DNA of 64,000 bases from a virus: positions 62,001 to 126,000 of the IMG/VR virus record IMGVR_UViG_3300006339_000005. One strand, 5' to 3'. Shown here one piece after another: positions 5,105-63,303 of the stretch (within the stretch, counting starts at the first letter, position 1; each line of letters begins with the position of its first letter). Position numbers and translations under genes: made by a program. The notes under the pieces are model-generated. The model was not told the DNA's origin and made no database searches. It saw nothing but the letters and a program-made list of their open reading frames with translations.

Positions 5105-8100
5105 ATGGCTAATTTAGTATCACCAGGCGTACAAGTTCAAGTTATAGACGAAAGTTTCTATACACCAGCTGAACCGGGTACAGTACCTATGATATTCTTT
5201 GTATCTGCACAAGATAAGGCAAATGGTGCAGGAACAGGAACAGCGACAGGTACCACACAAAAACAAGCAGGAACACCTTTCTTGCTAACATCACAAAGAG
5301 AATTAACAGAAACATTTGGAGATCCAAGTTTCTATACAGATACAAATAACAATCCAATTAATGGCAGTGAGCTTAACGAATACGGATTACAAGCGGCTTA
5401 TTCATACCTAGGTGTGAGTAACAGAGCATGGGTAACAAGAGCTGACGTTAACACTACAGAATTACTTGCAACGGCAACTGAGCCGGCGGCAGATCCTGCA
5501 GATGGAACATTTTGGTTTGATACAGGAAATACTTTATGGGGCATTTTTGAATGGAACGCTAACGCGGCTACTGTCACTGGTGGACAGACATTTACTAATA
5601 AAATACCTTATGTAATAACAGACGAAACTAAAGTAACATCAGGCGTACCTAAGACATCCGTTGGTCAAGTAGGAGATTACGCCGTTGTTGCAACAACTAC
5701 ATTAAACAAAATATTTTACAAAAACACAGGAGGTGTTTGGGTACAATTAGGAACAACTAATTGGGTTTCAGCACATCCGACAGTAACAGGAACAGAAAGC
5801 AATCCAACTATTACAAACACAGCTAGTATGAGTGTTAATGCTACAGTTGTAACTTCAGGTGGAACAGCTTTAGCTGATGTTGTAAGTGCTCTTAACGGAG
5901 CAAGTATTGCCGGTGTAACTTCAGCGGTTGTTGATGGTAAATTTGAAATTTACTCAACAGGCGTAGATGTTGTATTAGCAACAAACAGTTCAACATTACT
6001 TTCAGAAATTGGTTTAACAGCTGGAACATTTAAAGCACCAGCATTACAAATTACACCGCATACTGACGTACCAGAATTTAAATTGTCTGATACTGCACCA
6101 AGACCAACAGGGTCTATTTGGATTAAAACTACACAACCTAACTTAGGTGCTCGTTTTAGAGTTAAGAAATTTAACGGAACGACTAATCTTTGGGAAGATG
6201 TTGTAGCACCAATGTACAGTACTAATCATTCAGCATTGTTTAACTTAGACAAAGCTGGTGGCGGAGTTAATCTAGCAGTAGGTACTTTATTTGTTAATTA
6301 CAATAACGCTGAAGTTAGTCCAATTTTAGCAGATTTTAAAATTCATAGACGTATTTCTACAGGAAACACAACTATTACAAGTGATATAATTGCCGCTCAA
6401 CTTACAGCGAACACTTATGCATTTAATATCCAAGAGTCTATTGTTGGACAAGAAGCTCTAGGAGCAGATGTAACAGTTAGTGTTACAACTACAGCGGCAT
6501 CAAGTGATGCTGACGAAATTGCAGGTGCAATTAACTCAGCAGGATTTACTAACGTTGAAGCTTCAGTAGATGCTTCAAATAGAATTGTTATTTCACATAA
6601 TGATGGTGGTGAATTCCGTATTGAAGATACCGGTGGCGTACTTACCTTAGCTGGATATATAGCTTATGTAGATACTACAACAGGTACACCTAACTTGTAT
6701 GCGGCGCCAACAGGCGACAGTACACACAGTTTAGTTGCAAGTAACTGGCAAGTATTAACTTATACAGCAGGATCAGATGCACCAACTGCCTTAACAACAG
6801 ATAACAGATTATGGTACAGTTCAATTGTTGACGAAGTTGACATGATGGTCCACAATGGTACTACTTGGGTAGGATATCAAGATTCGACTAGCCCGTTTTA
6901 TGCGGTTGCGTCAGCTGATAAAACTGACCCAGCTGGTCCGATTGTAGCGGCAACAGAGCCAACTGTACAATCAGATGGTACTGCACTTAAAAATGGTGAC
7001 CTTTGGATTTCAACAGCAGATGTTGAAAACTATCCACAAATTTACAAATATAACGGATCTACTTTAAAGTTTGTTTTAATTGATTCAAGTGATCAAACAA
7101 CTGAAGATGGCGTTTTATTTGCAGATGCACGTTACAATACAGCAGGTGCTAATTCAGATAAAGACGGAACTATTGCGGCACTATTAGTAAGTAACTTTAT
7201 TGATACTGACGCTCCAGATCCAGCACTATATCCAAAAGGTATGTTGCTTTATAATCTACGTAGAAGTGGTTTTAATGTTAAAAAGTTTGTTCGTAACTAT
7301 GTTAACACATCTACAGACAATATTAGATTTGGCGACGAATCACAAGATGCCTACTATGCACACCGTTGGGTTACTGAATCAGCTAACCAACCAAATGGTG
7401 CAGGTAGCTTTGGACGTAAAGCACAACGTAAAGTTGTTGTACAAGGACTTCAAGCACTAGTAAATAGCAACCAGAAAATTAGAGATGATGAATCAAGGTT
7501 GTTTAACTTAATGGCTTGTCCTGGATATCCAGAACTAATTGGTGAAATGGTTACATTAAACTATGATAGAAGCCTAAGTGCATTTATTATAGGTGACTCA
7601 CCGTTTAGGTTAACACCGGATGCAACTTCACTTAACAACTGGGGCAAAAATACAGCTCTAGCAGTTGAAGATAATGACGATGGGCTTGTTACTTTTGATG
7701 AATACTTAGGTGTATTTTATCCAAGTTTATTCACAAGTGACAACGCAGGTAACAACGTAGTTGTTCCACCAAGTCATGCAACATTAAGAACATTTGCATT
7801 AAGCGATCAAGTTTCGTTTCCATGGTTTGCACCAGCAGGAACAAGACGTGGTGGCATTACAAACGCAAGTGCGGCAGGTTACATTGACAACGAAGGTGAA
7901 TTTGTAAGTACTGCACTTAATGAAGGGCAACGTGACACGTTATATAGCAACGCTATTAACCCAATTACGTTCCTAACAGGAGCAGGGTTAGTAATCTTTG
8001 GACAAAAGACAAGAGCCAAGAATGCATCGGCACTTGATAGAATTAACGTAGCACGTCTAGTAATTTACTTACGTGGGCAACTTAAAAAACTTGCTAAACC

Positions 8101-8353
8101 TTATATCTTTGAACCAAATGATAAGATTACGCGAGACGAAATTAAGGCGCAAACTGATACTTTGCTACTTGAACTAGTTGGTCAAAGAGCACTTTATGAC
8201 TTCTTAGTTGTGTGTGATGAATCAAACAACACTCCAGCTAGAATCGATCGTAATGAGCTTTATTTAGATATTGCCATAGAGCCAGTGAAAGCAGTTGAAT
8301 TTATTTACATTCCACTAAGGCTTAAAAATACTGGTGAAATAGCGGGACTGTAA
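5105..8353 (+). CDS. 18: Tail sheath protein gp18 with large surface insertion
   Basis: A 1082-residue contractile sheath subunit; T4 gp18 has 659. The N terminus (LVSPGVQVQVIDESFY) and C terminus (residues about 880-1080, with FPWFAPAGTRRG, the LDRINVARLVIYLRGQLKK helix and DIAIEPVKAVEFIYI) are typical of sheath proteins. Roughly residues 125-660 are an insertion of repeated modules: four copies of a GtlW-x-T...YKYNG-x-x-W unit (near 133-153, 335-363, 567-590, 631-655) alternate with two Ala/Val-rich domains (about 235-310 and 425-515). The insertion is probably exposed on the tail surface. Late promoter and strong ribosome-binding site upstream; gp19 follows. Confidence 0.92.
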   Translation: MANLVSPGVQVQVIDESFYTPAEPGTVPMIFFVSAQDKANGAGTGTATGTTQKQAGTPFLLTSQRELTETFGDPSFYTDTNNNPINGSELNEYGLQAAYSYLGVSNRAWVTRADVNTTELLATATEPAADPADGTFWFDTGNTLWGIFEWNANAATVTGGQTFTNKIPYVITDETKVTSGVPKTSVGQVGDYAVVATTTLNKIFYKNTGGVWVQLGTTNWVSAHPTVTGTESNPTITNTASMSVNATVVTSGGTALADVVSALNGASIAGVTSAVVDGKFEIYSTGVDVVLATNSSTLLSEIGLTAGTFKAPALQITPHTDVPEFKLSDTAPRPTGSIWIKTTQPNLGARFRVKKFNGTTNLWEDVVAPMYSTNHSALFNLDKAGGGVNLAVGTLFVNYNNAEVSPILADFKIHRRISTGNTTITSDIIAAQLTANTYAFNIQESIVGQEALGADVTVSVTTTAASSDADEIAGAINSAGFTNVEASVDASNRIVISHNDGGEFRIEDTGGVLTLAGYIAYVDTTTGTPNLYAAPTGDSTHSLVASNWQVLTYTAGSDAPTALTTDNRLWYSSIVDEVDMMVHNGTTWVGYQDSTSPFYAVASADKTDPAGPIVAATEPTVQSDGTALKNGDLWISTADVENYPQIYKYNGSTLKFVLIDSSDQTTEDGVLFADARYNTAGANSDKDGTIAALLVSNFIDTDAPDPALYPKGMLLYNLRRSGFNVKKFVRNYVNTSTDNIRFGDESQDAYYAHRWVTESANQPNGAGSFGRKAQRKVVVQGLQALVNSNQKIRDDESRLFNLMACPGYPELIGEMVTLNYDRSLSAFIIGDSPFRLTPDATSLNNWGKNTALAVEDNDDGLVTFDEYLGVFYPSLFTSDNAGNNVVVPPSHATLRTFALSDQVSFPWFAPAGTRRGGITNASAAGYIDNEGEFVSTALNEGQRDTLYSNAINPITFLTGAGLVIFGQKTRAKNASALDRINVARLVIYLRGQLKKLAKPYIFEPNDKITRDEIKAQTDTLLLELVGQRALYDFLVVCDESNNTPARIDRNELYLDIAIEPVKAVEFIYIPLRLKNTGEIAGL

Positions 8354-13880: not shown

Positions 13881-15476
13881 ATGAGTATAAAAAGTCTAGA
13901 CGGTGTTCTTACTAAGAAGGCTCACACACGTGAGTCGTTTAATGAACAACAAATAAAAGATATTAAAAACTGTATGGATGAAGAAACTGGGTTTCTTTAT
14001 TTTTCAGAATACTTCTATAACATTCAACATCCTGTTGAAGGTAAATTATTATTTAAACCATACGACTATCAAATAAAACTCATGCAGGCATATCATGAGC
14101 ATAGGTTTAATGTTAATATGCTACCACGTCAAAGTGGTAAAACAACTTGTGCTTCTGCATACCTTTTATGGTTTGCTATGTTTCATCCTGATCAAACAAT
14201 ATTAATTGCCGCACATAAATTTGCTGGCGCTCAAGAAATTATGCAACGTGTTCGATATGGATATGAATTATGTCCTGATCATATACGTGCAGGTGTAACA
14301 AACTATAATAAAGGTTCAATGGAATTTGAAAACGGTAGTAGATTAGTAAGTGCTACGACGACAGGAAATACAGGACGTGGTATGTCTATATCTTTATTAT
14401 ACTGTGATGAGTTTGCATTTGTTAATCCTAGTATTGCAGACGAGTTTTGGACTTCAATGTCACCTACATTAGCAACAGGTGGTCGTGCAATTATTACTTC
14501 AACACCTAATTCAGATGAAGATACATTTGCAATTATATGGAAAGAATCACAAAACAAATTTGATGAAAATGGACTTGAACAAGCAGTAGGTATTAATGGC
14601 TTTCATGGCTTTACAGCTAATTGGGACGAACATCCTGATAGAGATGAACAATGGGCTAAAGACGAAGTTGGTCGTATTGGTGAAGAAAGATTTAGACGTG
14701 AGTACGGTTGCGAATTTTTAGTTTATGATGAAACATTAATTAATGCAATTAAATTATCTACATTAGAAGGAATGAATCCTGTACTTAATATGGGTCAAAC
14801 CCGTTGGTACGGTAAACCAACTGGAGATAAAACGTATGTAGTTTCTTTAGATCCTGCTATGGGTACTGGTGGCGATTTCGCGGCTATTCAAGTAATTGAA
14901 TTACCTACATATAATCAAATTGCAGAATGGCGACATAATACAACACCTATACCTACACAAATTAGAATTATGAAAGATATTTGTAATTATATTAAAGAAA
15001 CGTGTAATACTGATGGGCAAAATATTTACTGGAGTGTAGAAAACAACGCTATTGGTGAAGCCGCACTTATTGTTATTAATGACTTTGGTGAAGAGAATAT
15101 ACCAGGAATGTTTGTTAATGAACCTATTAAAAAAGGACATATACGTAAATTCCGCAAAGGATTTAATACTACTCATATTAGTAAAGTAAGTGCTTGTGCT
15201 AAACTAAAAACTATGATAGAAAACGATCGTATGAAGGTAAACAGCAAATTACTAATTACTGAGCTTAAAGGCTTTGTTGCGGCTGGTTCTAGTTATAAGG
15301 CAAAACCTGGTGAAACTGACGATTTAGTTATGTCCGCTTTATTAAGTATGCGTATGATTAGCGTGATGAAAATGTGGGATCCAAGAGTATACGATACATT
15401 TAATCAAGCTGATGAGGATCCTGATGAAGATTTTGTACCGCCTATGCCAATCATGGTTAGTACTCAATACAGATAA
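13881..15476 (+). CDS. 17: Terminase large subunit gp17
   Basis: A 531-residue packaging motor. The ATPase domain has an adenine-binding YDYQIKLM, Walker A PRQSGKTT (82-89), Walker B LLYCDE (172-177) and a coupling motif in the SATTTGNTGRG / TSTPNS segments. The RNase-H-like nuclease domain begins near residue 310 (VVSLDPAMGTGGDFAA) and has a second acidic motif in YWSVENNAIGEA and a third near GETDDLVMS. It pumps DNA into proheads and cuts headful ends. It has its own late promoter, and a second late promoter overlaps its stop codon. Confidence 0.95.
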   Translation: MSIKSLDGVLTKKAHTRESFNEQQIKDIKNCMDEETGFLYFSEYFYNIQHPVEGKLLFKPYDYQIKLMQAYHEHRFNVNMLPRQSGKTTCASAYLLWFAMFHPDQTILIAAHKFAGAQEIMQRVRYGYELCPDHIRAGVTNYNKGSMEFENGSRLVSATTTGNTGRGMSISLLYCDEFAFVNPSIADEFWTSMSPTLATGGRAIITSTPNSDEDTFAIIWKESQNKFDENGLEQAVGINGFHGFTANWDEHPDRDEQWAKDEVGRIGEERFRREYGCEFLVYDETLINAIKLSTLEGMNPVLNMGQTRWYGKPTGDKTYVVSLDPAMGTGGDFAAIQVIELPTYNQIAEWRHNTTPIPTQIRIMKDICNYIKETCNTDGQNIYWSVENNAIGEAALIVINDFGEENIPGMFVNEPIKKGHIRKFRKGFNTTHISKVSACAKLKTMIENDRMKVNSKLLITELKGFVAAGSSYKAKPGETDDLVMSALLSMRMISVMKMWDPRVYDTFNQADEDPDEDFVPPMPIMVSTQYR

Positions 15477-49021: not shown

Positions 49022-49294
49022 ATGCCGAGCGAACTCTTAAATACTAAAAACACTTCCAAAACAACTCATACCATTACCAATTCAAATTTTAAAGACGTAG
49101 AACTAGTCAAACTCATGACCGACGCCTTACGTAATTACACTCGTTATAGAGTTCGTGTGGAGGGCTGGTCTAAAGAGTACAGCAGGCATTTTGAATCAGA
49201 TATCAAAACTATTGAACATTGGAACACATTAGACTTTAACTATGATCCACTGTACAATACATTTGTTTTTACGCACAGGAGGAAAAAACAATGA
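49022..49294 (+). CDS. 90-residue protein upstream of the synthetase
   Basis: A basic protein (RNYTRYRVRVEGWSKEYSRH). No domain recognised. I took the ATG at 49022; a GCTAAATA late-promoter-like element sits 10 bases before it. The 3' end has AGGAGG, which is the ribosome-binding site of the synthetase gene, and overlaps it by ATGA. Coupling suggests joint function. Confidence 0.6.
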   Translation: MPSELLNTKNTSKTTHTITNSNFKDVELVKLMTDALRNYTRYRVRVEGWSKEYSRHFESDIKTIEHWNTLDFNYDPLYNTFVFTHRRKKQ

Positions 49295-50147: not shown

Positions 50148-50234
50148 TCCGGGGTGGTGGAAACGGTAGACACGATAGCCTGTTTAGCTATTGCTTGGGA
50201 GAGCGTGGAGGTTCGAATCCTCCCCCCGGAGCCA
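50148..50234 (+). tRNA. Class II (long variable arm) tRNA with GUU anticodon; Asn by anticodon
   Basis: All arms pair: acceptor TCCGGGG/CCCCGGA, D stem GTG/CAC, anticodon stem ATAGC/GCTAT, variable arm of 15 bases with a 4-pair stem (TGCT/AGCG), T stem GGAGG/CCTCC with loop TTCGAAT, and encoded GCCA. The anticodon loop CTGTTTA gives anticodon GTT at 50182-50184, which reads Asn codons. The discriminator is G, as in bacterial tRNA-Asn. The D arm (GGTGGAA...GGTAGACAC) and long variable arm are instead typical of tRNA-Leu. So it is a chimera: Leu-type body with Asn anticodon and discriminator. Confidence 0.88.
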
Positions 50235-52093: not shown

Positions 52094-52705
52094 TTAATTA
52101 TCGCTTGACTTATAGTCTTTATCGACCACACACATAACCATATGAATTCTATCTGCTTCACTGCCGTTAAATTGTGAATGATAAAAACGTGTATCAGTAA
52201 ACCAGCAAGTTCCCGTTTTCATATGATGTACTTCGTCTTCGATAATCATTTTTGATCCAATTAAGGTTCTAACAGGAACGTGTATCCTTGGCTCTGGATC
52301 ACGATGCCAGGATAAAGCCCTTCGTGGCATAGAACGTACTAAACGTACCCGTCCTATTTTCCAGTCCTCAGAAATTGTTTCGTATACTTGTTTAAAATAT
52401 GTATGAGCAAACTCGGGAATAAATTTTGTGTACTCGCTTTCGCATATATCTTGTAAGCGACTTACTTCTTTGCCTTCAGCATCAAACGTATCATAATGCC
52501 CGCCTTCGCCTCCATGATACTCGTGTTCTTCATTTTCTTTTTCTGTTAAGCAAATCTGTGGAGAGTAAATATCATTCTTGCCAAACTTGTTTACATTTCC
52601 TCCGGACATCTTATCGCCCCAAGGACAAATCTGCAATACATCATGTAGCCCTTCTTCTAGCTTTTCGTTATCAAACTCATATGTTAATTTTTTAAAGTAC
52701 TTCAT
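52094..52705 (-). CDS. Aspartyl/asparaginyl-hydroxylase-like 2OG/Fe(II) protein
   Basis: A 203-residue protein. RRALSWHRDPEPRIHVPVRT gives H134 and D136, and TDTRFYHSQFNGSEADRIHM gives H176 and R186: the metal triad and 2-oxoglutarate arginine. The HxD...H layout with RxH-P resembles Asp/Asn beta-hydroxylases. The ATG at 52705 is coupled to the upstream stop (TAATG) and has GAGGAGGG upstream. Substrate unknown, perhaps a host or phage protein. Confidence 0.78.
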   Translation of the reverse strand: MKYFKKLTYEFDNEKLEEGLHDVLQICPWGDKMSGGNVNKFGKNDIYSPQICLTEKENEEHEYHGGEGGHYDTFDAEGKEVSRLQDICESEYTKFIPEFAHTYFKQVYETISEDWKIGRVRLVRSMPRRALSWHRDPEPRIHVPVRTLIGSKMIIEDEVHHMKTGTCWFTDTRFYHSQFNGSEADRIHMVMCVVDKDYKSSDN

Positions 52706-52866
52706 TACCAACACCCTCCTCGTATTGCACATAGGAATAACATCTTTGCTTTAACATGAAATGGAGCCACTTCAGCACAACCCATGTTTATATTATAGAA
52801 CCATACTCCACCTATAGTTGCACTTACAATAAAGAATCCTATAGTTACTTTCCAAAATGTTGTCAT
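52705..52866 (-). CDS. 53-residue membrane protein
   Basis: One membrane helix (VTIGFFIVSATIGGVWFY) and a Cys-containing tail ending IRGGCW. Its start overlaps the upstream stop (ATGA) and its stop the next start (TAATG). Function unknown. Confidence 0.6.
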   Translation of the reverse strand: MTTFWKVTIGFFIVSATIGGVWFYNINMGCAEVAPFHVKAKMLFLCAIRGGCW

Positions 52867-52973: not shown

Positions 52974-54104
52974 CTATCTATTCATTATAAACATACTTCC
53001 AAACTTTGTATTAACCGCGTCACTTAGATTAACGTCCTCTTGTTTATAATACCCTTCTTTGTTAAGTTTATCTTGTAAAAATAATTCAACCATTGTTAAC
53101 ATTCCTGATGCAGTAGTTAATTCTATTGCTGTATAATATCTATCATTATATGTTTCTGGATAAAATACTTTCTTGTATATACGTTCCTTATGCTTACCAT
53201 TTATCCTACCACCAGCTGTAATAAACAAAATTACAACATCACGTCTTGTAGTTGACACACCTCTTTTAATAATTTCAATTAACTCTTTATTAGGAATTCT
53301 TAAATCATTTATTAAGAAATCTATAAGGTTATGATGTCCTTTACGGCGTATAGTTTTATAATTTATATTTGAATGCGTAAAGCGTTCATCATCTAAGTCA
53401 GCTATAGTTCTTGCAAACGTACCTAAGCCTCCACTCGTATTAAATGCTTCATACGTATCACCGCCAATCATTAATGTTTCATATCCTGTAAGAGTAGGCA
53501 CTTCATAATATTTGCCATCTCTAATAATTGCACAATCGCCACAATACTCATTTACTAAACCATCAGCACTCCATGACAAATGATACTTTAACTTATTAGT
53601 TGCATCTTGTGATAATGCTCCAACACGTATCTTAATATGATCAACTGGATCCATATCATGCATTAAGTTGTTTGCAATAACTGTACTCATACCAGGAGCA
53701 AGTCCACAATGCGGCATTGTAAATTGGATGCCTGTTCTAGTTTCAGAAACATACTTACGATCTCTTATCCAATTATCTAATTCAGCATCTTCTGAGAAAT
53801 CAAAGTACGGAATATTACATTCCATACAAGCATTATGAATAACCATATTTTCTGTATATGGTAGAGCATTAATTATAAGTGTAAAGTCACAAACGAAATC
53901 CTGTAGTATTGAGTTGTTTGCTCCAGGATGTCTAGTATCTATTTGCTTGTAATCTTCTTCAGCAAATGCTCCCGAACGAGTAGCATTATATGGCGTCATA
54001 TCCGCTACTGTAACGCTGTAGTTTGTACGATCTTTTAAAAGATGATATACTGCACTACCTATTGCTCCTGCTCCGAATATTCCTATTTTAACTTGATCAG
54101 ACAT
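52974..54104 (-). CDS. Saccharopine/lysine-6-dehydrogenase-like oxidoreductase
   Basis: A 376-residue NAD(P)-dependent enzyme of the saccharopine dehydrogenase family. Rossmann motif GIFGAGAIGSAVYHLL at 8-23 with VTVADMT as strand 2; the catalytic domain has MPHCGLAPGMSTVIANNL and LSWSADGLVNEYCGD. Length suits lysine 6-dehydrogenase or saccharopine reductase, which act on lysine or its 2-aminoadipate semialdehyde adduct. Carboxynorspermidine dehydrogenase is a further possibility. It ends the metabolic part of the minus-strand block, and an aldehyde dehydrogenase suitable for the next lysine step is encoded upstream. Confidence 0.8.
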   Translation of the reverse strand: MSDQVKIGIFGAGAIGSAVYHLLKDRTNYSVTVADMTPYNATRSGAFAEEDYKQIDTRHPGANNSILQDFVCDFTLIINALPYTENMVIHNACMECNIPYFDFSEDAELDNWIRDRKYVSETRTGIQFTMPHCGLAPGMSTVIANNLMHDMDPVDHIKIRVGALSQDATNKLKYHLSWSADGLVNEYCGDCAIIRDGKYYEVPTLTGYETLMIGGDTYEAFNTSGGLGTFARTIADLDDERFTHSNINYKTIRRKGHHNLIDFLINDLRIPNKELIEIIKRGVSTTRRDVVILFITAGGRINGKHKERIYKKVFYPETYNDRYYTAIELTTASGMLTMVELFLQDKLNKEGYYKQEDVNLSDAVNTKFGSMFIMNR

Positions 54105-54115
54105 AATGCTTGTAC

Positions 54116-54967
54116 TTATCTAACTTTGGATAAGAACTCCTTCACTGTATTAACAACAACAAATCTTAGATTTTTAAATTCCATTAGCCGCCTAATTACA
54201 TAAGGCATCCAGTCTGCTCCATATGGTGCATACGTTCTAACATTATAACCTTCACCTATTAAGCGTTTAGCTAAATCACGCCTAATGCCAAACAACATTT
54301 CAAAATAAAACTTCCTTTTACAACTGTATTGTTTTGCTAATTCTTTAATTCTATGTATTAAATATTCATCATGAGTTGCTAGTGATATTAATTCTTGCTT
54401 ATAACTCTTATCATAAAAGTATCCGCTTTTAAAAAGCTCTTCTACTAATTCTAAATATGAGCTTCGTACCTTATGTTTATTATGGATATCTCCTTTGTAT
54501 GCACCTTTACAAATTCTTACTCTACGTTTACTTTCAATTACATCTGCTAAATCAGTATATGAACGTTCCATATTAGCTTGTAATACAATACCGATATCCT
54601 TAAAGCATCGTGAAAATTTTAATGTATCATCAATTGACTCTGCTTTCTCCATATCAAATTTAATTTTAATAAACGGTATATCTTTTACTACATTAACAAT
54701 TCGTTCTACAGGTTCTTTCCAATCACTAGGTAGCTGACCGAATTGACTTAACTTAATAGATACTTCGTATTCTCTATGTGGAAGGTCAAATAACTTACTA
54801 ATTAAATCTAAATATTCTTTTAAGTTTGCTTTAATTTCACAAGGTGCATAAGCACTTTCGCCTACATAATTAATAGTCACTAGATCATATTGTCTGATAT
54901 TGTATAACATTGATGCAATATCATCACCAGCAATAAATCTCTTAGCTAACGGAAATAATAATTTCAT
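54116..54967 (-). CDS. Proline dehydrogenase (PutA-type catalytic domain)
   Basis: A 283-residue FAD enzyme converting proline to pyrroline-5-carboxylate and passing electrons to quinone. Family motifs in order: NYVGESAY, VSIKLSQFG, RICKGAYKG, SLATHDEYLI, FYFEMLFGIRRDLAK, and YAPYGADWMPYVIRRLMEF (the RRLxE substrate motif, with M in place of the usual residue). It is a monofunctional barrel domain with no fused P5C dehydrogenase. The start overlaps the upstream lyase stop (ATGA). Proline oxidation by a phage enzyme would feed the respiratory chain. Confidence 0.9.
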   Translation of the reverse strand: MKLLFPLAKRFIAGDDIASMLYNIRQYDLVTINYVGESAYAPCEIKANLKEYLDLISKLFDLPHREYEVSIKLSQFGQLPSDWKEPVERIVNVVKDIPFIKIKFDMEKAESIDDTLKFSRCFKDIGIVLQANMERSYTDLADVIESKRRVRICKGAYKGDIHNKHKVRSSYLELVEELFKSGYFYDKSYKQELISLATHDEYLIHRIKELAKQYSCKRKFYFEMLFGIRRDLAKRLIGEGYNVRTYAPYGADWMPYVIRRLMEFKNLRFVVVNTVKEFLSKVR

Positions 54968-56325
54968 AACGGGCTTCTTATAAACCTAGCTTGGAAAAAT
55001 CGTAATTCTTTTGGCTCGTATGTCATTGTTAAGCCTTTTATTTTATCTGCATTTTTATATAACTGACTAATAGAATTAGCGGTATATTCTAAATGCTCTG
55101 ACGTATATACCCTGCGTGGAATTGTTAAACGTATTAATTCCATATCATCGTAAGGTTCGTCACCGTGTTGTCCTGATACAATTCCACGCTCCATTGTTCT
55201 AACACCAGACTCTTCATATATTGAAGCGGCTACTGTTTGTGCTGGATATCTGTCTTGTGGAATATGTGGAACAAATCTTTTTGCATCAATAAAAACTGCA
55301 TGGCCTCCAATTGGTACTACAATAGGTACCCCTCCTTCTTGTAACTGTTCTCCAAAATGTCTTACTTGTCCTACTCTATGTGCAATATGATCATCGTCAA
55401 CGCTTTCATAAAGACCTCTTGCTAACGCTTCCATATCACGTCCTGACAGCCCACCGTAGGTATGAAGTCCTTCATATATTACTACCATGCCTCGCATTCT
55501 TTCAAATAGTTCTTCGTCATTAAGGGCAATGAAGCCGCCCATATTTACAAGTCCATCCTTTTTAGCTGAGCAAGTTATACCATCTGCATACGCACAAATT
55601 TGTAAAACAATTTCTGCAACTGATTCATGAAAACCGTTTGCAATGACTGGGCCATCTAACTGTTGAATAAAATAAGCATTCTCTACTAATCGTGTTGCAT
55701 CTATCCACAATGGTATATTGTGTTCTTTACAAATTGAACTTACCTCTGACAGATTTTGCATACTAAATGGTTCACCACCAGCCATATTAACACAAGCCTC
55801 CATGCTAACAAATGGCACGTGATTATTATTAATGCAATCTTTCAATTTATCTAAATCAATATTTCCTTTATATGGAAAATCATTTTCAGGTTGATGTGCT
55901 TCATCTACTGATACGTCTTCCCAAATTCCTTTTGCTATTTCTTGATGGGCTCGTCTAGTAGTAAAATAAAGATTGTTAGGAATTACATCACCTTCTTTAA
56001 TCATTAACTGAGATTGAATATGTTCTGCTCCACGCCCTTGATGTGTAGGAACAACATACTTAAATCCGTATATGTCTTGAATTGCTTTTTCTAAATTATA
56101 AAAGTTTCTTGACCCAGCGTATGCTTCATCACCTAACATCATGCCTGCCCATTGATTATCGGACATGGCTGTCGTGCCTGAGTCTGTTAATAAATCAATA
56201 TAAACATCTTCTGACCTTAAAAGAAACGTATTATAATGAGCTTCTTTCATTGCTACTAATCTGTCTTTATATGGAATAAGCCTAATAGGCTCAACTGCTT
56301 TTATTTTATACGGTGGTAAATGCAT
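54964..56325 (-). CDS. tpl: Tyrosine phenol-lyase
   Basis: A 453-residue PLP enzyme of the tryptophanase/tyrosine phenol-lyase family, complete in length. YNTFLLRSEDVYIDLLTDSG, AMSDNQWAGMMLGDEAYAGS and PTHQGRGAE are near-identical to the lyase family. The PLP lysine is K256 in TCSAKKDGLVNMGG. R380 in GVRTMERG corresponds to Arg381 of Citrobacter tyrosine phenol-lyase, where tryptophanase has a non-basic residue, so tyrosine is the predicted substrate: tyrosine to phenol, pyruvate and ammonia. An AAGGA site precedes the ATG. The pyruvate could feed the oxidoreductase encoded upstream. Confidence 0.9.
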   Translation of the reverse strand: MHLPPYKIKAVEPIRLIPYKDRLVAMKEAHYNTFLLRSEDVYIDLLTDSGTTAMSDNQWAGMMLGDEAYAGSRNFYNLEKAIQDIYGFKYVVPTHQGRGAEHIQSQLMIKEGDVIPNNLYFTTRRAHQEIAKGIWEDVSVDEAHQPENDFPYKGNIDLDKLKDCINNNHVPFVSMEACVNMAGGEPFSMQNLSEVSSICKEHNIPLWIDATRLVENAYFIQQLDGPVIANGFHESVAEIVLQICAYADGITCSAKKDGLVNMGGFIALNDEELFERMRGMVVIYEGLHTYGGLSGRDMEALARGLYESVDDDHIAHRVGQVRHFGEQLQEGGVPIVVPIGGHAVFIDAKRFVPHIPQDRYPAQTVAASIYEESGVRTMERGIVSGQHGDEPYDDMELIRLTIPRRVYTSEHLEYTANSISQLYKNADKIKGLTMTYEPKELRFFQARFIRSPL

Positions 56326-56797
56326 ACTTGGTATCCTTATAGAAAGATAATTCGTTATCCATTATGCCGAACTTTAATTGCATTTCGTTTAAAGAACTAT
56401 CCCAATCTTCTTTCGTCCAGTTTACCTCGCCTATACGCTTAATATTTCTCGTACGCCCGTAGGTAAAGCCACGTTCAAAAATGTTTATTTGTTCTTTACT
56501 AAATTTATTTTTTTTAGGATATAGGAAGCGTGAAATAAATTTGAATAATTTAACTTCCCACGTTTTGGTTCGATCATCATTGCCCATTGTAAAGCCAATT
56601 ACAAAAGCCTCTGAGTCATTTGATTGATCACATTCTAGTAAGACATGAATAGCATCATGATCTCGTAATGCCGCTGATCCATGAAGACAAAAAGGCGACA
56701 TTGGGTTCTCCACAAACCATATTATAAAAGATATCTCAGTCGGTTCGACTGTTTCATACCCACGTATGAACTCCTCGTATACTTCCCGAAAAGTCAT
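56306..56797 (-). CDS. Unknown protein with HDxxH motif (Coq4-like, tentative)
   Basis: A 163-residue protein. CLHGSAALRDHDAIHVLLE contains HDAIH, as in the HDxxH metal site of Coq4-type proteins, with AFVIGFTMGND after it and a C-terminal FERGFTYGRTR. Coq4 helps assemble the ubiquinone pathway; a quinone link would suit the neighbouring proline dehydrogenase, but the similarity is only by short motif. The 3' end overlaps the lyase gene by 20 bases. Confidence 0.6.
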   Translation of the reverse strand: MTFREVYEEFIRGYETVEPTEISFIIWFVENPMSPFCLHGSAALRDHDAIHVLLECDQSNDSEAFVIGFTMGNDDRTKTWEVKLFKFISRFLYPKKNKFSKEQINIFERGFTYGRTRNIKRIGEVNWTKEDWDSSLNEMQLKFGIMDNELSFYKDTKYAFTTV

Positions 56798-56809
56798 TAC
56801 CTTGCCCCC

Positions 56810-57088
56810 TTAAAACACAAACATTTTAAATATTCCTGATAGCGTAATTGCTACTACAATTATATTTAACACTAGTAAGTTAATACTTTGTCGTAAGTAA
56901 GCATTAATTGTATGTAGTAACGCACCGGATAAAGTGAATAGGAAAACTAGAGAAACAGGAGCATCGTCGCCGTGCCATGCTAGTATAACATACACACTTA
57001 TAAAGCACAATGCTCCTGTAGTTTCAACAACTAACCTAAACCTGTTCTGTTCCCAATCTTCTATTAACCACGACTTAAAACTTTTCAA
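56810..57088 (-). CDS. Small integral membrane protein, TTG start
   Basis: A 92-residue protein with two or three membrane helices (VVETTGALCFISVYVILAW, SLVFLFTLSGALLHTI, LLVLNIIVVAITLSGIF). The TTG start overlaps the upstream stop (TTGA) and has AAGGA at a normal distance. Function unknown. Confidence 0.6.
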   Translation of the reverse strand: MKSFKSWLIEDWEQNRFRLVVETTGALCFISVYVILAWHGDDAPVSLVFLFTLSGALLHTINAYLRQSINLLVLNIIVVAITLSGIFKMFVF

Positions 57089-57477
57089 ATTCCAGGTCCT
57101 TCTTCCCCAGGTGTAAAGAGTTCAGCTTTATTACCACCTACTATACAAGCCTTATCTTGACCTTTAAACATAAAAGAAATTGCCCATTGGTCGTTATCTG
57201 GATTCATCCACATCTCTACAGAAACTAGCTCTTTGTAAAAATGATTATGAACTAATCCTTTCATAGCTCTATGCATACGATAATCCTTTTTAGCCATAGC
57301 TAATATCTTTTCCTTTGTATCACAATACGTCATTATTACATTTAGGTTCTTCAGCTCTGGACCTTTTACATCTGGTAATGTACCGTTTGACAGAGCATCA
57401 TTCATTAAGAATAATGTTGTTAAACAAAGAATAGCAAAATATAAAGCTAGTTTTATCTGTACTGATAGGTGTCTCAT
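57085..57477 (-). CDS. Secreted protein, unknown
   Basis: A 130-residue protein with an N-terminal signal or anchor (LALYFAILCLTTLFLMNDAL). The mature part has an MTYCDTKEKILAMAKKDYRM helix and a strand-rich end with one more Cys (DKACIVGG), so an exported disulfide is possible. Coupled to its upstream thioredoxin-like neighbour (ATGA), which could act on it. Confidence 0.65.
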   Translation of the reverse strand: MRHLSVQIKLALYFAILCLTTLFLMNDALSNGTLPDVKGPELKNLNVIMTYCDTKEKILAMAKKDYRMHRAMKGLVHNHFYKELVSVEMWMNPDNDQWAISFMFKGQDKACIVGGNKAELFTPGEEGPGI

Positions 57478-58190
57478 CTACCCTCCTTCATCAAAGTATC
57501 CGTTCCCGGACTAATTGCCATTGAACACGGCATCCAAACATTCTCTTTAGCATGGTAATGAACATTAGATCCACAGTCTAAATAATCTGCGGCCGCTAGT
57601 GCTTTTTGCGGAGTATCATATGTATGATCAAATATATTATCAGAGTCTTTTACACCGTCAGGAACTGCTCGTTTTAATTCAAGATGTTGACTATGTGACC
57701 CTTCATCATGTCGTTTAAAAGGTTTGTTGTGACTAGAATTTGGATCATCTCTAGGATCTTTCTGAGGTGCCCACTGGTCTTCGTTCTGCTTTCCTAAAAA
57801 TGGTGGAGCATTCTCTTCTGCTTCTATTAAATGCTTGTTGTTTGCTATAAATTGATTAATATTTTTATAAAAATCATCTTTTCCATTATAGCCAACCCAC
57901 CTAGTAATTTCTCTATCCGTCCATATCATGAACGTAGGTGTGCCTGCAATTCTACCTACACGCTTTGATTTGAATGCTTCAATATACCAATCAGGCACAG
58001 GACCATCCATATCAATAATATGTAACGGTAATACTTTGCCTGCTTCAGACTCAGCATACGTTGGTTTAACTTCTTCTAAAAATCGCACACAAAAATTACA
58101 ATTTGGATTGCTGAACATTAATAGTTCAATTGCGTGACTTGGTGTAACAAATAGCACGATGAATGCTAGAGCTAATAATAGCTTTTTCAT
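57474..58190 (-). CDS. Exported thioredoxin-like protein with Cys-rich C-terminal domain
   Basis: A 238-residue protein with a cleavable signal peptide (ALAFIVLFVTPSHA). The mature N-terminal domain is thioredoxin-like: SNPNCNFC (C31, C34) and GTPTFMIWTD with the cis-Pro. A long polar linker leads to a C-terminal DTPQKALAAADYLDCGSNVHY ... VWMPC region resembling the short DUF3721 pattern of cyanobacteria. Probably a periplasmic thiol reductase or oxidase. A GGAGAGAGGG site precedes the ATG. The next gene product is its likely partner. Confidence 0.75.
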   Translation of the reverse strand: MKKLLLALAFIVLFVTPSHAIELLMFSNPNCNFCVRFLEEVKPTYAESEAGKVLPLHIIDMDGPVPDWYIEAFKSKRVGRIAGTPTFMIWTDREITRWVGYNGKDDFYKNINQFIANNKHLIEAEENAPPFLGKQNEDQWAPQKDPRDDPNSSHNKPFKRHDEGSHSQHLELKRAVPDGVKDSDNIFDHTYDTPQKALAAADYLDCGSNVHYHAKENVWMPCSMAISPGTDTLMKEGR

Positions 58191-58213
58191 ACCCTCTCTC
58201 CTTTATGTGAAAT

Positions 58214-59737
58214 TTACTCTTCTATCTGAGCTTTTTGTAATGTACCACTATAATCAACAAAGACAGATTTCCACTCAGTACAATTATCAATCATACTGTG
58301 TCCTGCTTCACGATGCCCATTACCGGTTCCTTTAGTACCACCAAAGGGTAACTGTATTTCTGCACCAATAGTTGACGAATTAATGTAAGTAATGCCTGTG
58401 TCTATTTCATTAAACGCTTTAAAGGCAAAATTTACATTCGCCGTATAAACTGCGGCCGATAATCCATACTTAGAATTATTAACCATGTCTATAACTTCAT
58501 CAGTATCACTAAACGATACTAATGCTACTACAGGACCAAACACTTCTTCCTGTGCAATCATATCGTCTTGCTTTACGTTTGTAATAACAGTTGGCATATA
58601 AAACCAACCGTATGTTTCTTTAAACGTGCCATACTTCTCTGGAACATCATTAGTAGGCTGTTGGTTAATAGCACCTCCACACAATACAGTATTAGTAACC
58701 TTAGCTTCTGTTACCATCATGTGTATTTTATTTAACGCTTTTTCATTAATAACAGGCCCCATATCAACCTTATCGTCTGAACCGTCACCTACAAATAATG
58801 CTTCGGCTCGCTTAACAAGTTTATCTGTAAACTCGTCTTTAATGCTATCTTGAACAAATACTCTTGAACACGCTGTACAACGTTGTCCTGTTGTGCCAAA
58901 TGCACCCCACACAACACCGTCAACAGCAAGATCCATATCAGCATCTTCCATAACAACTATTGCATTCTTGCCACCCATCTCTAATGAATAAGGCTTCATT
59001 TGATCTGCACATCTAGTTGCTACTTTCCAACCTGTAACTGTTGAGCCAGTAAATGATATAAACTTAACTGTAGTGTTTGCTACTAATGGTTGTCCCGCCG
59101 ATTCTCCATAACCTGTAACTACATTAAACACTCCTGGTGGTAATCCTGCTTCTTCAAATACCATTGCTAGTCTACATACACTCAGTGGTGTATCTTCCGC
59201 TGGCTTAATAACCATTGTGTTACCGGCTACAAGGGCAGGGAAGGCCTTCCATGACGGAATAGCTATTGGAAAATTCCAAGGAGTGATTGCTCCGATAACG
59301 CCTATTGGCATTCGCATGGACATACAGAACTTATCATTCAGTTCTGATGGAACTGTCATTCCTCCCAATCTCCGACCCTCACCTGCCGCATAGTAGCCCA
59401 TATCAATTGCTTCTTGAACATCGCCACGTGTTTCAGATAATGGCTTACCCATTTCCTGAGTCATTATCTTTGCTATATCTTCTTTATCTCGTATTAAAAT
59501 TTCGGACGCTTTAAATAATATCTCACCGCGTTTTGGTGCTGGAACCTTACGCCACGTTTTAAATGCTTCGTGTGCCACAGCTACAGCTTTATCGATATCT
59601 TCTTTATTACTGTCTTGGACAGTAGCTATAACTTGTTTACAATGAGCAGGGTTCGTGACTTCAATCTTTTTACCTGAAGCTGAGTCTACCCATTGGCCAC
59701 CTATATAATTTTTATAGTCAGTTTTCATTAGAATCAT
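58214..59737 (-). CDS. NAD(P)-dependent aldehyde dehydrogenase
   Basis: A 507-residue full-length aldehyde dehydrogenase. Visible: [38 protein letters not shown] (general-base Glu), [12 protein letters not shown] (nucleophile Cys), [13 protein letters not shown], and a C-terminal [17 protein letters not shown] followed by TEWK and VDYSG. The C-terminal pattern matches the semialdehyde dehydrogenases of sugar-acid and amino-acid catabolism rather than the proline-specific ALDH4 type. Candidates are aminoadipate or glutamate semialdehyde. AAGGAG precedes the ATG. Confidence 0.9.
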
Positions 59738-59776
59738 GGTAACTCCTTCGTTTAATTATATGCGTATTTAACTCTA

Positions 59777-61371
<1,595 letters not shown>

Positions 61372-61479
61372 TTAATTTTCCTCTTTCTTAATACCCAATA
61401 GTTTTTTAATCAATTCAAGCATATATTTTATCTTACTCATAGTACAGGCACAACAAGATTCTTTAACGGTAGTTGTCAT
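61372..61479 (-). CDS. 35-residue Cys-rich microprotein between porB and porA
   Basis: MTTTVKESCCACTMSKIKYM start and a basic helical tail ending KKEEN. Three Cys in a CCxC arrangement. It overlaps the upstream gene (ATGA) and ends directly before the porA ATG. Its first five codons and the bases before them repeat the start region of porA, so it may have arisen by a local duplication. Confidence 0.6.
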   Translation of the reverse strand: MTTTVKESCCACTMSKIKYMLELIKKLLGIKKEEN

Positions 61480-62330
61480 TTAATTTTTTCCCCTTGTTCT
61501 CGCAAATAATCTTTTGCTCTGTCAGATATTTCTTCTTCAAAACCGTAACGGTCTTTCTCTACATCAAATGCATCTTTCATAACTTCTGGAGTTGGTATTG
61601 AATACTCAATGTTGCATGATGTATATGCTTGAATGTATGTAGACCCAAACTCTCTTGCAACTAGTATTGCTCGTCTAACAGAGCGAGCCACCCTTGCAGG
61701 ATTTGTAGGTGCTATACGACATACATAATCAAGTTTTGCAACTCTTGCCAATCCCAACATATCCATCTTCTCATCTACTTTACCACGGGGTGACATCTTT
61801 GCAACTAGACCCTTTTGAGTCATTCCACTTTCTTGTCCACCTGTGTTACCGTAGATTTCATTGTCCAACATAATGGTTGTAAACTTCTCATGCCTAAACC
61901 AACTATGCATGAGTCCTTGAAATCCTATATCAACTAGTCCACCATCACCACACATTACTATTACATCTTTATCTTGTTCTGGAAATCGTAATTCTAATCC
62001 TCGTTTCAATCCAGATGCAACAGCATTTGTATCGCCATAGTTTCCATAAATGAATGGAACATTACCTTGACTTATTGCTAACCTTCCACAACCAGCCGTA
62101 CCACAAATAATGGTATGCTCTGGTTTTGGTAATGCAAGAAATACAATTCGTATAAAAAGAGTCATAGCACATCCGGCACACATTGGATGTTCTTCAATTA
62201 ACTCTTTGAACTTGCCCATGTCCTTAACTTTTTTAGGCTTGCCATACTGACCATGTTTAACAAGGTCTTGGTACTCAACAGGCAAGTGTTCTAAATAGCC
62301 AGGGCTAGGCCTTACAGTTGCTAATGACAT
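61476..62330 (-). CDS. porB: 2-oxoacid:ferredoxin oxidoreductase beta subunit, copy 2
   Basis: A 284-residue beta subunit. Iron-sulfur ligands C51, C54 (CAGC), C81 (AGC) and C239 (YTSC); thiamine diphosphate motif GDG at 128-130 with N162 (IYGNTGG); HPM before the first Cys pair is family-typical. It binds thiamine diphosphate and one [4Fe-4S] cluster. It starts one base after the other beta gene, from which it differs widely, so the two are old paralogues and not a recent duplication. Confidence 0.93.
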   Translation of the reverse strand: MSLATVRPSPGYLEHLPVEYQDLVKHGQYGKPKKVKDMGKFKELIEEHPMCAGCAMTLFIRIVFLALPKPEHTIICGTAGCGRLAISQGNVPFIYGNYGDTNAVASGLKRGLELRFPEQDKDVIVMCGDGGLVDIGFQGLMHSWFRHEKFTTIMLDNEIYGNTGGQESGMTQKGLVAKMSPRGKVDEKMDMLGLARVAKLDYVCRIAPTNPARVARSVRRAILVAREFGSTYIQAYTSCNIEYSIPTPEVMKDAFDVEKDRYGFEEEISDRAKDYLREQGEKIK

Positions 62331-62331
62331 A

Positions 62332-63303
62332 TTACACAGATTCCAATACTTTAGCGTTACGTTGAGCTTTGGCTTCTTGGTCAGCTTTTAGTTTAGCTTT
62401 GAATTCAAGTTTACGTTCTTTCTCTTCAGCTTTTACTCTGTCTATAACAGCTTGTCCTTCATCAGTAATGTAACAGCGATTAACAAAACGTCCACCGATA
62501 CTTTCTGAGTCTTTCATTTCATCAAGCCCTTCCATACTCTGCTTACCAATTTCTAGTATACACGGAGTATACAATTGGACAAACGTTGGGCCTACTTCAC
62601 GAGCAATATAAATGCCATGACGGATAGCTTCTGCAACTCTATTAGGTTTACTAACAGTTAGGATTGTTGAATAATGACAGCCAGCCTCTCGTGCTATTTC
62701 CACTAGGCGGACTTTTTCAAACTGCTTCCCCTTGGGAGCCATTTTTGCAACAAAGCCTTTTTGCATAAGTCCTGATTCCTGTCCACCCGTATTAGCGTAC
62801 AGCTCGTTATCAAAACATATAGTTAAAAAGCGTTCTTGTCTAAACCATGACTGCATAGTCATATCTAAACCAATATCAACAGTAGCACCATCACCAGCTA
62901 AGACTATTACATCTTTAATCTTATTAGGAAATCGTTTTGCTAAAGCTCTTTGAAGTCCACTAGCAATAGCATTTTGATTACCGAACAAGCTATGGATATT
63001 TTGAACTGCTACGTGGGGCCATACTAATGATGTACAGCCTGTACTTCCAACGAATACCGTATCTTCTGGGTTTGGAATACTTGCTAGGATATAACGAAAC
63101 GCTATGCTCTCTGGACAGCCTGCACATAGTGAATGCTGTTCAATTAATTCTTTACTGCTCCCAATATCTTTCCAGCCTCGATCCGTATTGCCATATGTAG
63201 AGTTCTCAACTAGTTCTTGATACTCTGGGGGCATAATATCTGCTAGTTCTTCACATAGGGCGATCTTGCTAGATTTATTTTTGCTTGGCGTATGCTGTGC
63301 CAT
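62332..63303 (-). CDS. porB: 2-oxoacid:ferredoxin oxidoreductase beta subunit, copy 1
   Basis: A 323-residue beta subunit. It keeps all four cluster ligands (C60, C63, C90, C248) and the thiamine diphosphate motif (GDG at 137-139, N171). Compared with copy 2 it has a 40-residue charged C-terminal tail (VKAEEKERKLEFKAKLKADQ). The start at 63303 has AGGAGAAC upstream, so 11 residues of a longer frame are dropped. Two intact beta subunits with one alpha may mean two enzymes of different substrate range or a mixed complex. Confidence 0.92.
   Translation of the reverse strand: MAQHTPSKNKSSKIALCEELADIMPPEYQELVENSTYGNTDRGWKDIGSSKELIEQHSLCAGCPESIAFRYILASIPNPEDTVFVGSTGCTSLVWPHVAVQNIHSLFGNQNAIASGLQRALAKRFPNKIKDVIVLAGDGATVDIGLDMTMQSWFRQERFLTICFDNELYANTGGQESGLMQKGFVAKMAPKGKQFEKVRLVEIAREAGCHYSTILTVSKPNRVAEAIRHGIYIAREVGPTFVQLYTPCILEIGKQSMEGLDEMKDSESIGGRFVNRCYITDEGQAVIDRVKAEEKERKLEFKAKLKADQEAKAQRNAKVLESV

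What the first reader, a model, noticed from the sequence alone, without database searches (positions are those of the whole stretch)
52974..63303. Phage-borne amino-acid oxidation island linked to a 2-oxoacid:ferredoxin oxidoreductase
One minus-strand block encodes tyrosine phenol-lyase, proline dehydrogenase, a saccharopine/lysine-dehydrogenase-like enzyme, an aldehyde dehydrogenase, a low-potential ferredoxin, and alpha plus two beta subunits of a 2-oxoacid:ferredoxin oxidoreductase. The enzymes chain logically: tyrosine to pyruvate, pyruvate to acetyl-CoA plus reduced ferredoxin, proline electrons to quinone, lysine or proline semialdehydes to acids plus NADH. Catalytic residues are intact in every member I could check. 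Phage auxiliary genes usually boost photosynthesis, nucleotides or sugar flux; a set that burns host amino acids for reductant is, to my knowledge, not a described module. The neighbouring genes are phage-like in size and overlap.
Basis: partly seen in the sequence, partly recalled or inferred. Interest (0 to 1): 0.92.

Follow-up and report, generated by a model that had tools for sequence, protein, structure and literature searches.

The report
Phage metabolic island for nitrite oxidizers
A virus of ocean nitrite-oxidizing bacteria carries spare catalytic parts of its host's CO2-fixing enzymes, plus genes that burn amino acids for reducing power; it seems to keep host metabolism running during infection rather than run a pathway of its own.

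Summary
The block is real, intact and phage-borne. The window is part of a 126.6-kb viral contig with terminase, portal, capsid and tail-sheath genes. Relatives G035, G085 and G086 carry parts of the block in the same order among the same phage genes, which excludes a chimeric join.

The reading changes. The oxidoreductase genes are closest to Nitrospinota (marine nitrite oxidizers), which fix CO2 by the reductive TCA cycle. [quoted passage not shown] alpha and "beta 2" match pyruvate:ferredoxin oxidoreductase (POR). In 26 phage contigs only POR alpha and POR/OGOR beta occur; gamma, delta, epsilon and OGOR alpha occur in none. Trees imply repeated separate captures; selection is purifying. So it is not a self-contained pathway: the phage probably tops up labile catalytic subunits of host carboxylases.

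The amino-acid half is partly supported: aldehyde dehydrogenase, proline dehydrogenase and the lysine-dehydrogenase-like gene recur in related phages; tyrosine phenol-lyase is in this phage alone of those examined.

Viral OFOR genes are in print (Lake Baikal Nitrospirota phages; korB lists). Nitrospinota hosts, the catalytic-subunit-only pattern, repeated capture and the amino-acid coupling appear new.

The parts
62332..63303 (-). beta subunit of pyruvate:ferredoxin oxidoreductase (POR beta, 'betaB'); TPP and [4Fe-4S] subunit; a TTG start at 63336 is possible
   Evidence: TPP_enzyme_C; 75-83% to Nitrospinota betaB at the locus with the 212-aa subunit; tree
61476..62330 (-). [quoted passage not shown]
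   Evidence: 73-86% to Nitrospinota betaA; cysteines 51, 54, 81, 239 and GDG 128-130 invariant in 8 of 8 aligned phage copies; tree
60103..61371 (-). alpha subunit of pyruvate:ferredoxin oxidoreductase ('alphaB')
   Evidence: POR_N and PFOR_II; up to 85% over near full length to Nitrospinota alphaB, about 47-52% to their alphaA
59777..60115 (-). low-potential type 2[4Fe-4S] ferredoxin, YfhL family
   Evidence: NF033683 above cut-off; 78-85% to a ferredoxin in 39 of 60 Nitrospinota genomes; 6 of 26 phage contigs
58214..59737 (-). aldehyde dehydrogenase (substrate not fixed; lysine or proline semialdehyde proposed)
   Evidence: Aldedh 4.7e-168; 50-62% host homologue over most of its length in 40 of 60 genomes; 8 of 26 phage contigs
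57474..58190 (-). thioredoxin-like protein (g120); signal peptide judged by eye only
   Evidence: Thioredoxin_2 E 1.5e-4, below the Pfam cut-off; conserved in 4 other contigs
57085..57477 (-). small protein g119, unknown, conserved in the block
   Evidence: 45-54% in G029/G077, G035 and G085, 35-37% in G031 and G076
56810..57088 (-). small membrane-like protein g118, unknown, conserved in the block
   Evidence: 52-73% in G035, G085, G086, G031, G076, G084
56306..56797 (-). g117, possibly Coq4-like (quinone biosynthesis), weakly assigned
   Evidence: HDxxHx11E (recalled as the Coq4 motif): H47, D48, H51, E63 invariant in 7 of 7; Pfam Coq4 E 0.12 in one of 7 members, but DUF5694 E 0.017 in two; best PDB profile hit 3msq E 0.15; Foldseek top hit 6e12 Alr8543, prob 0.96 but E 0.24, TM 0.49
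54964..56325 (-). tyrosine phenol-lyase
   Evidence: TIGR02618 643 bits, below cut-off; solved tyrosine phenol-lyases score best; only in this phage among the 26 contigs
54116..54967 (-). proline dehydrogenase, single-domain
   Evidence: Pro_dh 6.1e-21; 71-73% in G035, G085, G086, 46-47% in G087, G088, G089
52974..54104 (-). saccharopine/lysine-dehydrogenase-like oxidoreductase
   Evidence: Sacchrp_dh domains; best PDB sequence hit 3abi, PH1688; 48-71% in 6 other phage contigs
63376..63648 (-). g126, small hydrophobic protein, first gene of the block
   Evidence: 86% and same place in G035
13881..15476 (+). terminase large subunit (phage identity)
   Evidence: phrog_36964 9.9e-123
5105..8353 (+). 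tail sheath (phage identity)
   Evidence: phrog_10581 1.2e-220

Best explanation
The block is a lineage-specific metabolic island of a large contractile-tailed phage of marine Nitrospinota. Shown: the genes lie in phage genomes; the three oxidoreductase genes are closest to the host's reductive-TCA POR (alpha, beta) and OGOR (beta); and the phages examined hold only these catalytic subunits, captured more than once, never gamma, delta or epsilon. Inferred: during infection the phage replaces the TPP and [4Fe-4S] subunits most easily lost to oxygen; they join host-made gamma, delta and epsilon subunits, while phage ferredoxin (and, in other phages but not this one, NifU- and ErpA-like proteins) supplies electrons and clusters. 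The neighbouring dehydrogenases turn amino acids, perhaps released by the phage ClpP, into quinol and NADH, which a nitrite oxidizer otherwise gains only by costly reverse electron transport.
For: Phage identity. Synteny in relatives. Best 80 of 344 genome relatives of beta 1 are all titled as Nitrospinota or Nitrospirota groups. Two host loci: OFOR-A = 107-aa protein, alphaA, betaA, gammaA, Fd-like, with sucC in 5 of 8 such loci; OFOR-B = 212-aa subunit, alphaB, betaB, gammaB, Fd-like. PMC3578206 (passages) says the N. gracilis POR has five subunits and the OGOR lacks delta; the 212-aa gene is in 6 of 6 OFOR-B and 0 of 7 OFOR-A Nitrospinota loci. In 26 phage contigs: betaA 12 (3 cut by contig ends), betaB 13 (3 mostly cut off), alphaB 7 (1 cut); gammaA, gammaB, both Fd-like subunits, 107-aa, 212-aa, SucC, SucD 0; the gamma and Fd-like probes find 14 of 14 host loci. 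Viral scan for gamma: 575 pattern matches, 0 relatives. Trees: phage betaA 7 label changes, at least 4 forced; betaB 3, alphaB 3. dN/dS betaA 0.04-0.08, betaB 0.07-0.11, against terminase 0.13 and sheath 0.14. A. aeolicus OGOR lost 95% and PFOR all activity in air (PMC10052474 section 17); three cultured Nitrospinae lack catalase and SOD (PMC8026999 passages). NifU-like in 7 and ErpA-like in 5 of 26 contigs.
Against: No expression, assembly or turnover data. Five-subunit enzymes of Hydrogenobacter work under oxic conditions (PMC3578206 passage) and those of aerobes are proposed to be more oxygen-tolerant (PMC10052474 passage), which weakens the damage argument. Alpha is also taken. Low dN/dS may only reflect how conserved beta is anyway; host pairs were not measured. 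The 26 contigs were found with alphaB, betaA, betaB, ProDH and LysDH-like probes, so a gamma-only phage would show only, whose pattern method misses divergent copies. Terminase has no relative in 77 Nitrospinota genomes, so the host call rests on gene kinship. Substrates of the aldehyde dehydrogenase and LysDH-like protein are not fixed; they are neighbours in only 3 of about 30 host genomes with both. G085 keeps the dehydrogenases without any oxidoreductase gene, so the two halves are separable.
Confidence: 0.6

Rival explanations
1. The phage subunits enter host complexes but the enzymes run in the oxidative direction, burning pyruvate and 2-oxoglutarate from amino acids and glycogen to give acyl-CoA and reduced ferredoxin for phage needs.
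For: OFORs are reversible; PMC8026999 (section 17) says the oxidative TCA genes are all present in the three cultured Nitrospinae; amino-acid dehydrogenases lie beside them.
Against: Host loci are the CO2-fixation enzymes (PMC3578206 passages); SucC and SucD are in 0 of 26 phage contigs.
Confidence: 0.2
2. The phage subunits displace host subunits in order to change or shut down host CO2 fixation (a decoy or dominant-negative role).
For: Only part of each complex is encoded.
Against: Cluster cysteines and the TPP motif are invariant; strong purifying selection; ferredoxin and Fe-S assembly genes accompany them in several phages, which suits active enzyme.
Confidence: 0.08
3. The first reader's self-contained oxidation chain from tyrosine, proline and lysine through a phage oxidoreductase to acetyl-CoA and reduced ferredoxin.
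For: All named genes are present and intact.
Against: No gamma, delta or epsilon subunit in any of 26 phage contigs; tyrosine phenol-lyase only in this phage; beta 1 belongs to another complex.
Confidence: 0.07
4. Assembly chimera or passive host cargo.
For: Block lies at a contig end; several other contigs break inside betaA or betaB.
Against: Same order on independent contigs across the suspected join; phage-only clades; purifying selection between phage copies.
Confidence: 0.02

Closest known systems
Lake Baikal Nitrospirota phages VP_99 / VP_1723 (PMC7678222, passages read)
   Same: T4-like phages of nitrite oxidizers with a ferredoxin, ferredoxin-oxidoreductase genes (one close to POR beta) and an Fe-S assembly gene, proposed to aid reductive-TCA CO2 fixation.
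   Different: Freshwater Nitrospirota hosts; subunits named there as POR-beta-like and OGOR epsilon; 'proline' and 'aldehyde dehydrogenase' do not occur in the text; in the passages read, no survey of which subunits are carried and no count of captures.
Viral korB auxiliary genes in soils and trench sediments (PMC12615777, PMC12448302, passages); korA/C/D in lake sediment (PMC12783922, passages)
   Same: OFOR subunit genes reported on viral contigs.
   Different: Listed as annotations, other hosts named (for example Elusimicrobiota); in the passages read no Nitrospinota and no paired POR/OGOR catalytic subunits.
Viral nifU and ferredoxin-type genes of the ETNP oxygen minimum zone (PMC8940887, passages)
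   Same: Fe-S assembly and ferredoxin domains as viral auxiliary genes.
   Different: Not tied there to OFORs or to Nitrospinota ('Nitrospin' does not occur in the text).
Proline dehydrogenase in isolated phages (Microcystis phage MaAM05, annotated)
   Same: A phage-borne proline dehydrogenase.
   Different: 30.6% identity; neighbourhood not examined.
Cyanophage psbA/psbD (recalled)
   Same: Phage copies of the labile core subunits of a large host complex, without the rest of it.
   Different: Photosynthesis in cyanobacteria; here dark CO2 fixation and only sequence evidence.
Five-subunit POR and OGOR of Aquificaceae and Nitrospina (PMC10052474 section 17; PMC3578206 passages)
   Same: Related alpha and beta subunits.
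   Different: Phage lacks gamma, delta, epsilon and OGOR alpha.

Membership tests
Phage auxiliary metabolic genes | on a contig with phage hallmark genes | tested here: met
   terminase, portal, major head protein, sheath, tube
Phage auxiliary metabolic genes | same genes in the same phage neighbourhood on independent contigs | tested here: met
   G035, G085, G086
Phage auxiliary metabolic genes | host-derived sequence | tested here: met
   betaA, betaB, alphaB nest among or beside Nitrospinota copies; ferredoxin 78-85%. For ProDH and LysDH-like (up to 42% and 37%) and TPL the source is open; other phyla were not searched for them
Phage auxiliary metabolic genes | shown to act during infection | not testable with these tools
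   needs expression or isotope data
Complete POR or OGOR enzyme | alpha and beta with TPP motif and four cluster cysteines | tested here: met
   POR alpha and beta, OGOR beta
Complete POR or OGOR enzyme | gamma, delta and Fd-like epsilon subunits; OGOR alpha | tested here: not met
   0 of 26 phage contigs; control 14 of 14 host loci for gamma and Fd-like, 7 of 14 for the 212-aa and 6 of 14 for the 107-aa protein; gamma scan
Tyrosine phenol-lyase | TPL rather than tryptophanase sequence and active-site motifs | tested here: met
   643 bits to TIGR02618 against 440-487 to tryptophanase equivalogs, but below the 720.7 cut-off; motifs, roles recalled
Lysine 6-dehydrogenase | lysine oxidation at the epsilon amine | tested here: inconclusive
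   best PDB sequence hit 3abi, annotated PH1688; that it is a lysine dehydrogenase is recalled and one search found no paper; no NCBIfam model at cut-off
Proline dehydrogenase | Pro_dh domain and kinship to solved enzymes | tested here: met
   Pfam, solved ProDHs; NCBIfam equivalogs below cut-off
psbA-like partial-complex replacement | repeated independent capture of the catalytic subunits only | tested here: met
   within the stated limits of the searches
psbA-like partial-complex replacement | fast turnover of the replaced subunit in the host | not testable with these tools
   only air sensitivity in A. aeolicus seen (PMC10052474 section 17)

The most novel reading that the evidence does not exclude
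Phages of the ocean's main nitrite oxidizers have several times independently captured only the catalytic TPP/Fe-S subunits of both reductive-TCA carboxylases, a dark-ocean counterpart of cyanophage psbA/psbD. In one lineage this is joined to an amino-acid-to-quinol/NADH feed that gives an electron-starved host the reductant it can hardly make itself.
Probability: 0.45. Interest if true: 0.85.

Novelty: new variant of a known kind. Interest (0 to 1): 0.68.

Why it matters
Nitrospinae are called the most abundant known nitrite oxidizers of the oceans (PMC8026999, abstract in the listing). Heavy phage predation on them has been proposed (PMC8026999 passage), but no paper in the library searched used a phrase naming their phages. 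If phages sustain or redirect their CO2 fixation, virus infection enters the budget of dark carbon fixation and nitrification. The catalytic-subunit-only pattern also makes a question testable: which part of an oxygen-exposed reductive-TCA carboxylase fails first in an aerobe, since phages appear to have picked the same subunits several times.

Tried and rejected
Chimeric assembly: rejected by shared gene order in G035 (about 44-63.6 kb of the window), G085 (about 44-60 kb) and G086 (about 43.5-57 kb).

A complete phage oxidoreductase: rejected.

Prophage or binned-contig link to the host: terminase 0 of 77 Nitrospinota genomes (the tool warns that an empty answer without a known positive shows nothing); the helicase gave only weak matches, 24-37% identity, in 27 of 77. 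No help.

Isolated phages: beta 1 gave 12 records, all under 60% identity, 11 unannotated, possibly bacterial DNA; alpha 8 records under 60%; proline dehydrogenase 5 records at 28-31%, two annotated as proline dehydrogenase (Microcystis phage MaAM05, Staphylococcus phage UPMK_1); LysDH-like none.

Tyrosine phenol-lyase relatives in viral contigs: none; its donor stays unknown (7 of 60 Nitrospinota genomes, best 58%).

Promoter-like sites were fewer than in shuffles (37 against 55.7) and terminator-like ones near them (9 against 6.4); not used. One Rfam hit, a tRNA, in 40-64 kb. AsnRS-like g107 had no PDB match. The paper search for PH1688 gave nothing. PMC8290583 was opened for 'korB' and proved a false hit.

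Rows dropped before counts: the betaA tree used 68 rows, 12 phage and 56 of 80 hosts (L019-L062, then every third). In one search, 22 of 26 contigs were whole; G082, G087, G032 and G033 were the stretches held. The dN/dS pairs are 28 that I chose. One structure job of two and one Foldseek job of three were used.

Full report
What was checked. The window is bases 62001-126000 of G000, a 126,586-bp virus record classed as linear. I fetched the rest, joined it in a script and called 126 open frames. PHROGs models name portal, major head protein, tail sheath, tail tube, large terminase, UvsX, single-strand-binding protein and a DnaB-type helicase on the same contig.

Is it phage DNA? Yes. A 108.5-kb contig (G035) carries the run g126, POR beta, ferredoxin, aldehyde dehydrogenase, g120-g117, proline dehydrogenase, LysDH-like, g112-g107, helicase, carbamoyltransferase, ClpP in the same order at 39-91% identity; G085 carries the run from aldehyde dehydrogenase to ClpP and G086 from g118 to ClpP. 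G035 has no OGOR beta, POR alpha or tyrosine phenol-lyase; G085 has no oxidoreductase gene at all, though its contig goes on for about 9.6 kb beyond aldehyde dehydrogenase; G086 is cut before that place. So these look like additions or losses within one phage lineage. In G000 the gaps between the genes of the block run from a 20-base overlap to 104 bases.

Whose genes? A scan of the genome collection with beta 1 gave 344 relatives; the best 80 are all titled Nitrospinota/Nitrospinae/Nitrospina, or Nitrospirota and its groups, with best identity 86%. POR alpha matches 27 of 28 such genomes at 67-87% and, at a second locus, about 47-54%. Reading the two loci: OFOR-A holds alphaA, betaA, gammaA and an Fd-like protein; OFOR-B holds a 212-aa protein, alphaB, betaB, gammaB and an Fd-like protein. 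I name OFOR-A the OGOR because sucC lies near it in 5 of 8 loci and the 212-aa subunit is missing in the 7 Nitrospinota loci tested (the one Nitrospirota locus has a 51% relative). This matches the published statement that the Nitrospina gracilis POR has five subunits and the OGOR lacks delta (PMC3578206, passages). The phage carries betaA, betaB and alphaB.

Which subunits do phages take? I gathered 26 phage contigs (932,675 bases) through scans for betaA, betaB, alphaB, proline dehydrogenase and LysDH-like. BetaA is in 12 of 26 (3 cut by contig ends), betaB in 13 of 26 (3 mostly cut off), alphaB in 7 of 26 (1 cut). GammaA, gammaB, the two Fd-like subunits, the 107-aa and 212-aa proteins, SucC and SucD are in 0 of 26; alphaA queries hit only alphaB copies at 46-48%. 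The same probes at the same threshold find gamma and Fd-like genes in 14 of 14 host loci, the 212-aa protein in 7 and the 107-aa protein in 6. At E up to 1 the phage contigs give one gamma hit of E 0.55 and three SucD hits of E 0.075 or worse, which I take for noise. A separate viral scan for gamma found no relative in 575 pattern matches. Limits: many contigs are short and break inside these genes, and pattern scans miss divergent copies.

How often were they taken? On quick maximum-likelihood trees, the phage label needs 7 changes for betaA (at least 4 forced by starred branches; shuffled mean 11.3), 3 for betaB and 3 for alphaB. Phage betaA copies sit in several places within Nitrospinota and once within Nitrospirota (G033, G034). 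Changes count gains or losses. dN/dS between phage copies is 0.04-0.08 (betaA), 0.07-0.11 (betaB), 0.13-0.15 (alphaB), 0.09-0.13 (aldehyde dehydrogenase), 0.10-0.25 (proline dehydrogenase), 0.24-0.27 (LysDH-like), against 0.13 for terminase and 0.14 for sheath (simple Nei-Gojobori counts on pairs I chose; several dS values exceed 1 and one ferredoxin pair was saturated).

How does it work? Shown: phage genes, host kinship of the oxidoreductase parts, partial complexes, purifying selection. Inferred: hybrid complexes with host subunits. The beta subunit holds TPP and a [4Fe-4S] cluster, and the Aquifex enzymes lose 95-100% of activity in air (PMC10052474, section 17); three cultured Nitrospinae lack catalase and superoxide dismutase (PMC8026999, passages). 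Other phages add NifU-like (7 of 26) and ErpA-like (5 of 26) genes, which suits cluster repair; G000 as assembled has neither. This resembles cyanophage psbA (recalled). Against it, the five-subunit enzymes of aerobes are thought more oxygen-tolerant (PMC3578206 and PMC10052474 passages). Whether the enzymes run towards CO2 fixation or oxidation is not settled by sequence.

The amino-acid half. Proline dehydrogenase occurs in 7 of 26 contigs (1 cut), LysDH-like in 7 of 26 and aldehyde dehydrogenase in 8 of 26. Of 60 Nitrospinota genomes, 39 have a proline dehydrogenase relative (best full-length 42%), 37 a LysDH-like one (best 37%) and 40 an aldehyde dehydrogenase at 50-62% over most of its length. 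LysDH-like and aldehyde dehydrogenase are neighbours in two host loci that I read (G021, G003) and, by coordinates, in a third (G074); in the other 27 or so genomes with both they lie on different contigs or over 30 kb apart, G019 among them. So the link to lysine or proline semialdehyde is only suggestive. g117, beside tyrosine phenol-lyase, is weakly Coq4-like by three weak searches, with DUF5694 as a rival hit; it would fit a link to quinone. N. gracilis needs reverse electron transport for reductant (PMC3578206 passage); that electrons from proline and lysine would spare it is my inference. Tyrosine phenol-lyase is the odd one out: 0 of 25 other viral records, 7 of 60 Nitrospinota genomes.

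Novelty. Viral OFOR genes are known (PMC7678222, PMC12615777, PMC12448302, PMC12783922; passages read), as are viral nifU genes (PMC8940887, passages) and annotated proline dehydrogenases in isolated phages. I found no paper on Nitrospina phages with OFOR genes, or on this amino-acid set, in searches of an open-access library that lacks most subscription journals. I rate it a new variant of a known kind. That the samples are marine is recalled from the style of record names and the host group, not shown by a call.

Noticed in passing
window 50148-50234 (+); L163 19061-19147; L180 5231-5317; L179 about 14480-14640: A phage tRNA (Rfam tRNA 51 bits) with an Asn (GTT) anticodon but an 87-base body with extra variable arm and a Leu-like D arm (recalled). 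Its last 27 bases are up to 93% identical to Nitrospinota tRNA-Asn (7 of the 8 best loci are tRNA-Asn, one tRNA-Met; much of the shared tract is T arm). Conserved in 4 related phages with changes that look compensatory in the anticodon and T stems; ARAGORN calls it in 3 of the 4. The lowest-energy fold is not a cloverleaf. A mixed tRNA of unclear identity.
   Followed up: partly
window 49291-50142 (+): Class II aminoacyl-tRNA-synthetase-like core (D/K/N type, PF00152), 283 aa, too short for a usual anticodon domain, directly before that tRNA and conserved in G035, G085 (408-aa frame) and G086. Possible partner of the odd tRNA, or an asparagine-synthetase-like enzyme (recalled kind).
   Followed up: partly
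window 43852-44439 (+): Phage ClpP protease (PF00574, 2e-81), with ClpP-like genes in 12 of the other 25 contigs; could supply amino acids to the island.
   Followed up: no
window 52094-52732 (-): Aspartyl/asparaginyl beta-hydroxylase-like protein (PF05118), 89-90% in G035, next to the block.
   Followed up: no
L196-L204 (G079, 176 kb), L205-L209 (G080), L012 (G033), L210-L213 (G034): Contigs whose betaB or betaA groups with Nitrospirota: G079 and G080 carry POR beta without other OFOR genes, G033 and G034 OGOR beta alone; G079 and G034 have distant terminase, portal and capsid relatives of G000.
   Followed up: partly
hits H42 and H43 (MG065691, MG065686): Two unannotated Campylobacter phage records hold a tyrosine phenol-lyase/tryptophanase relative at 39.8% identity; phage gene or host DNA not examined.
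   Followed up: no
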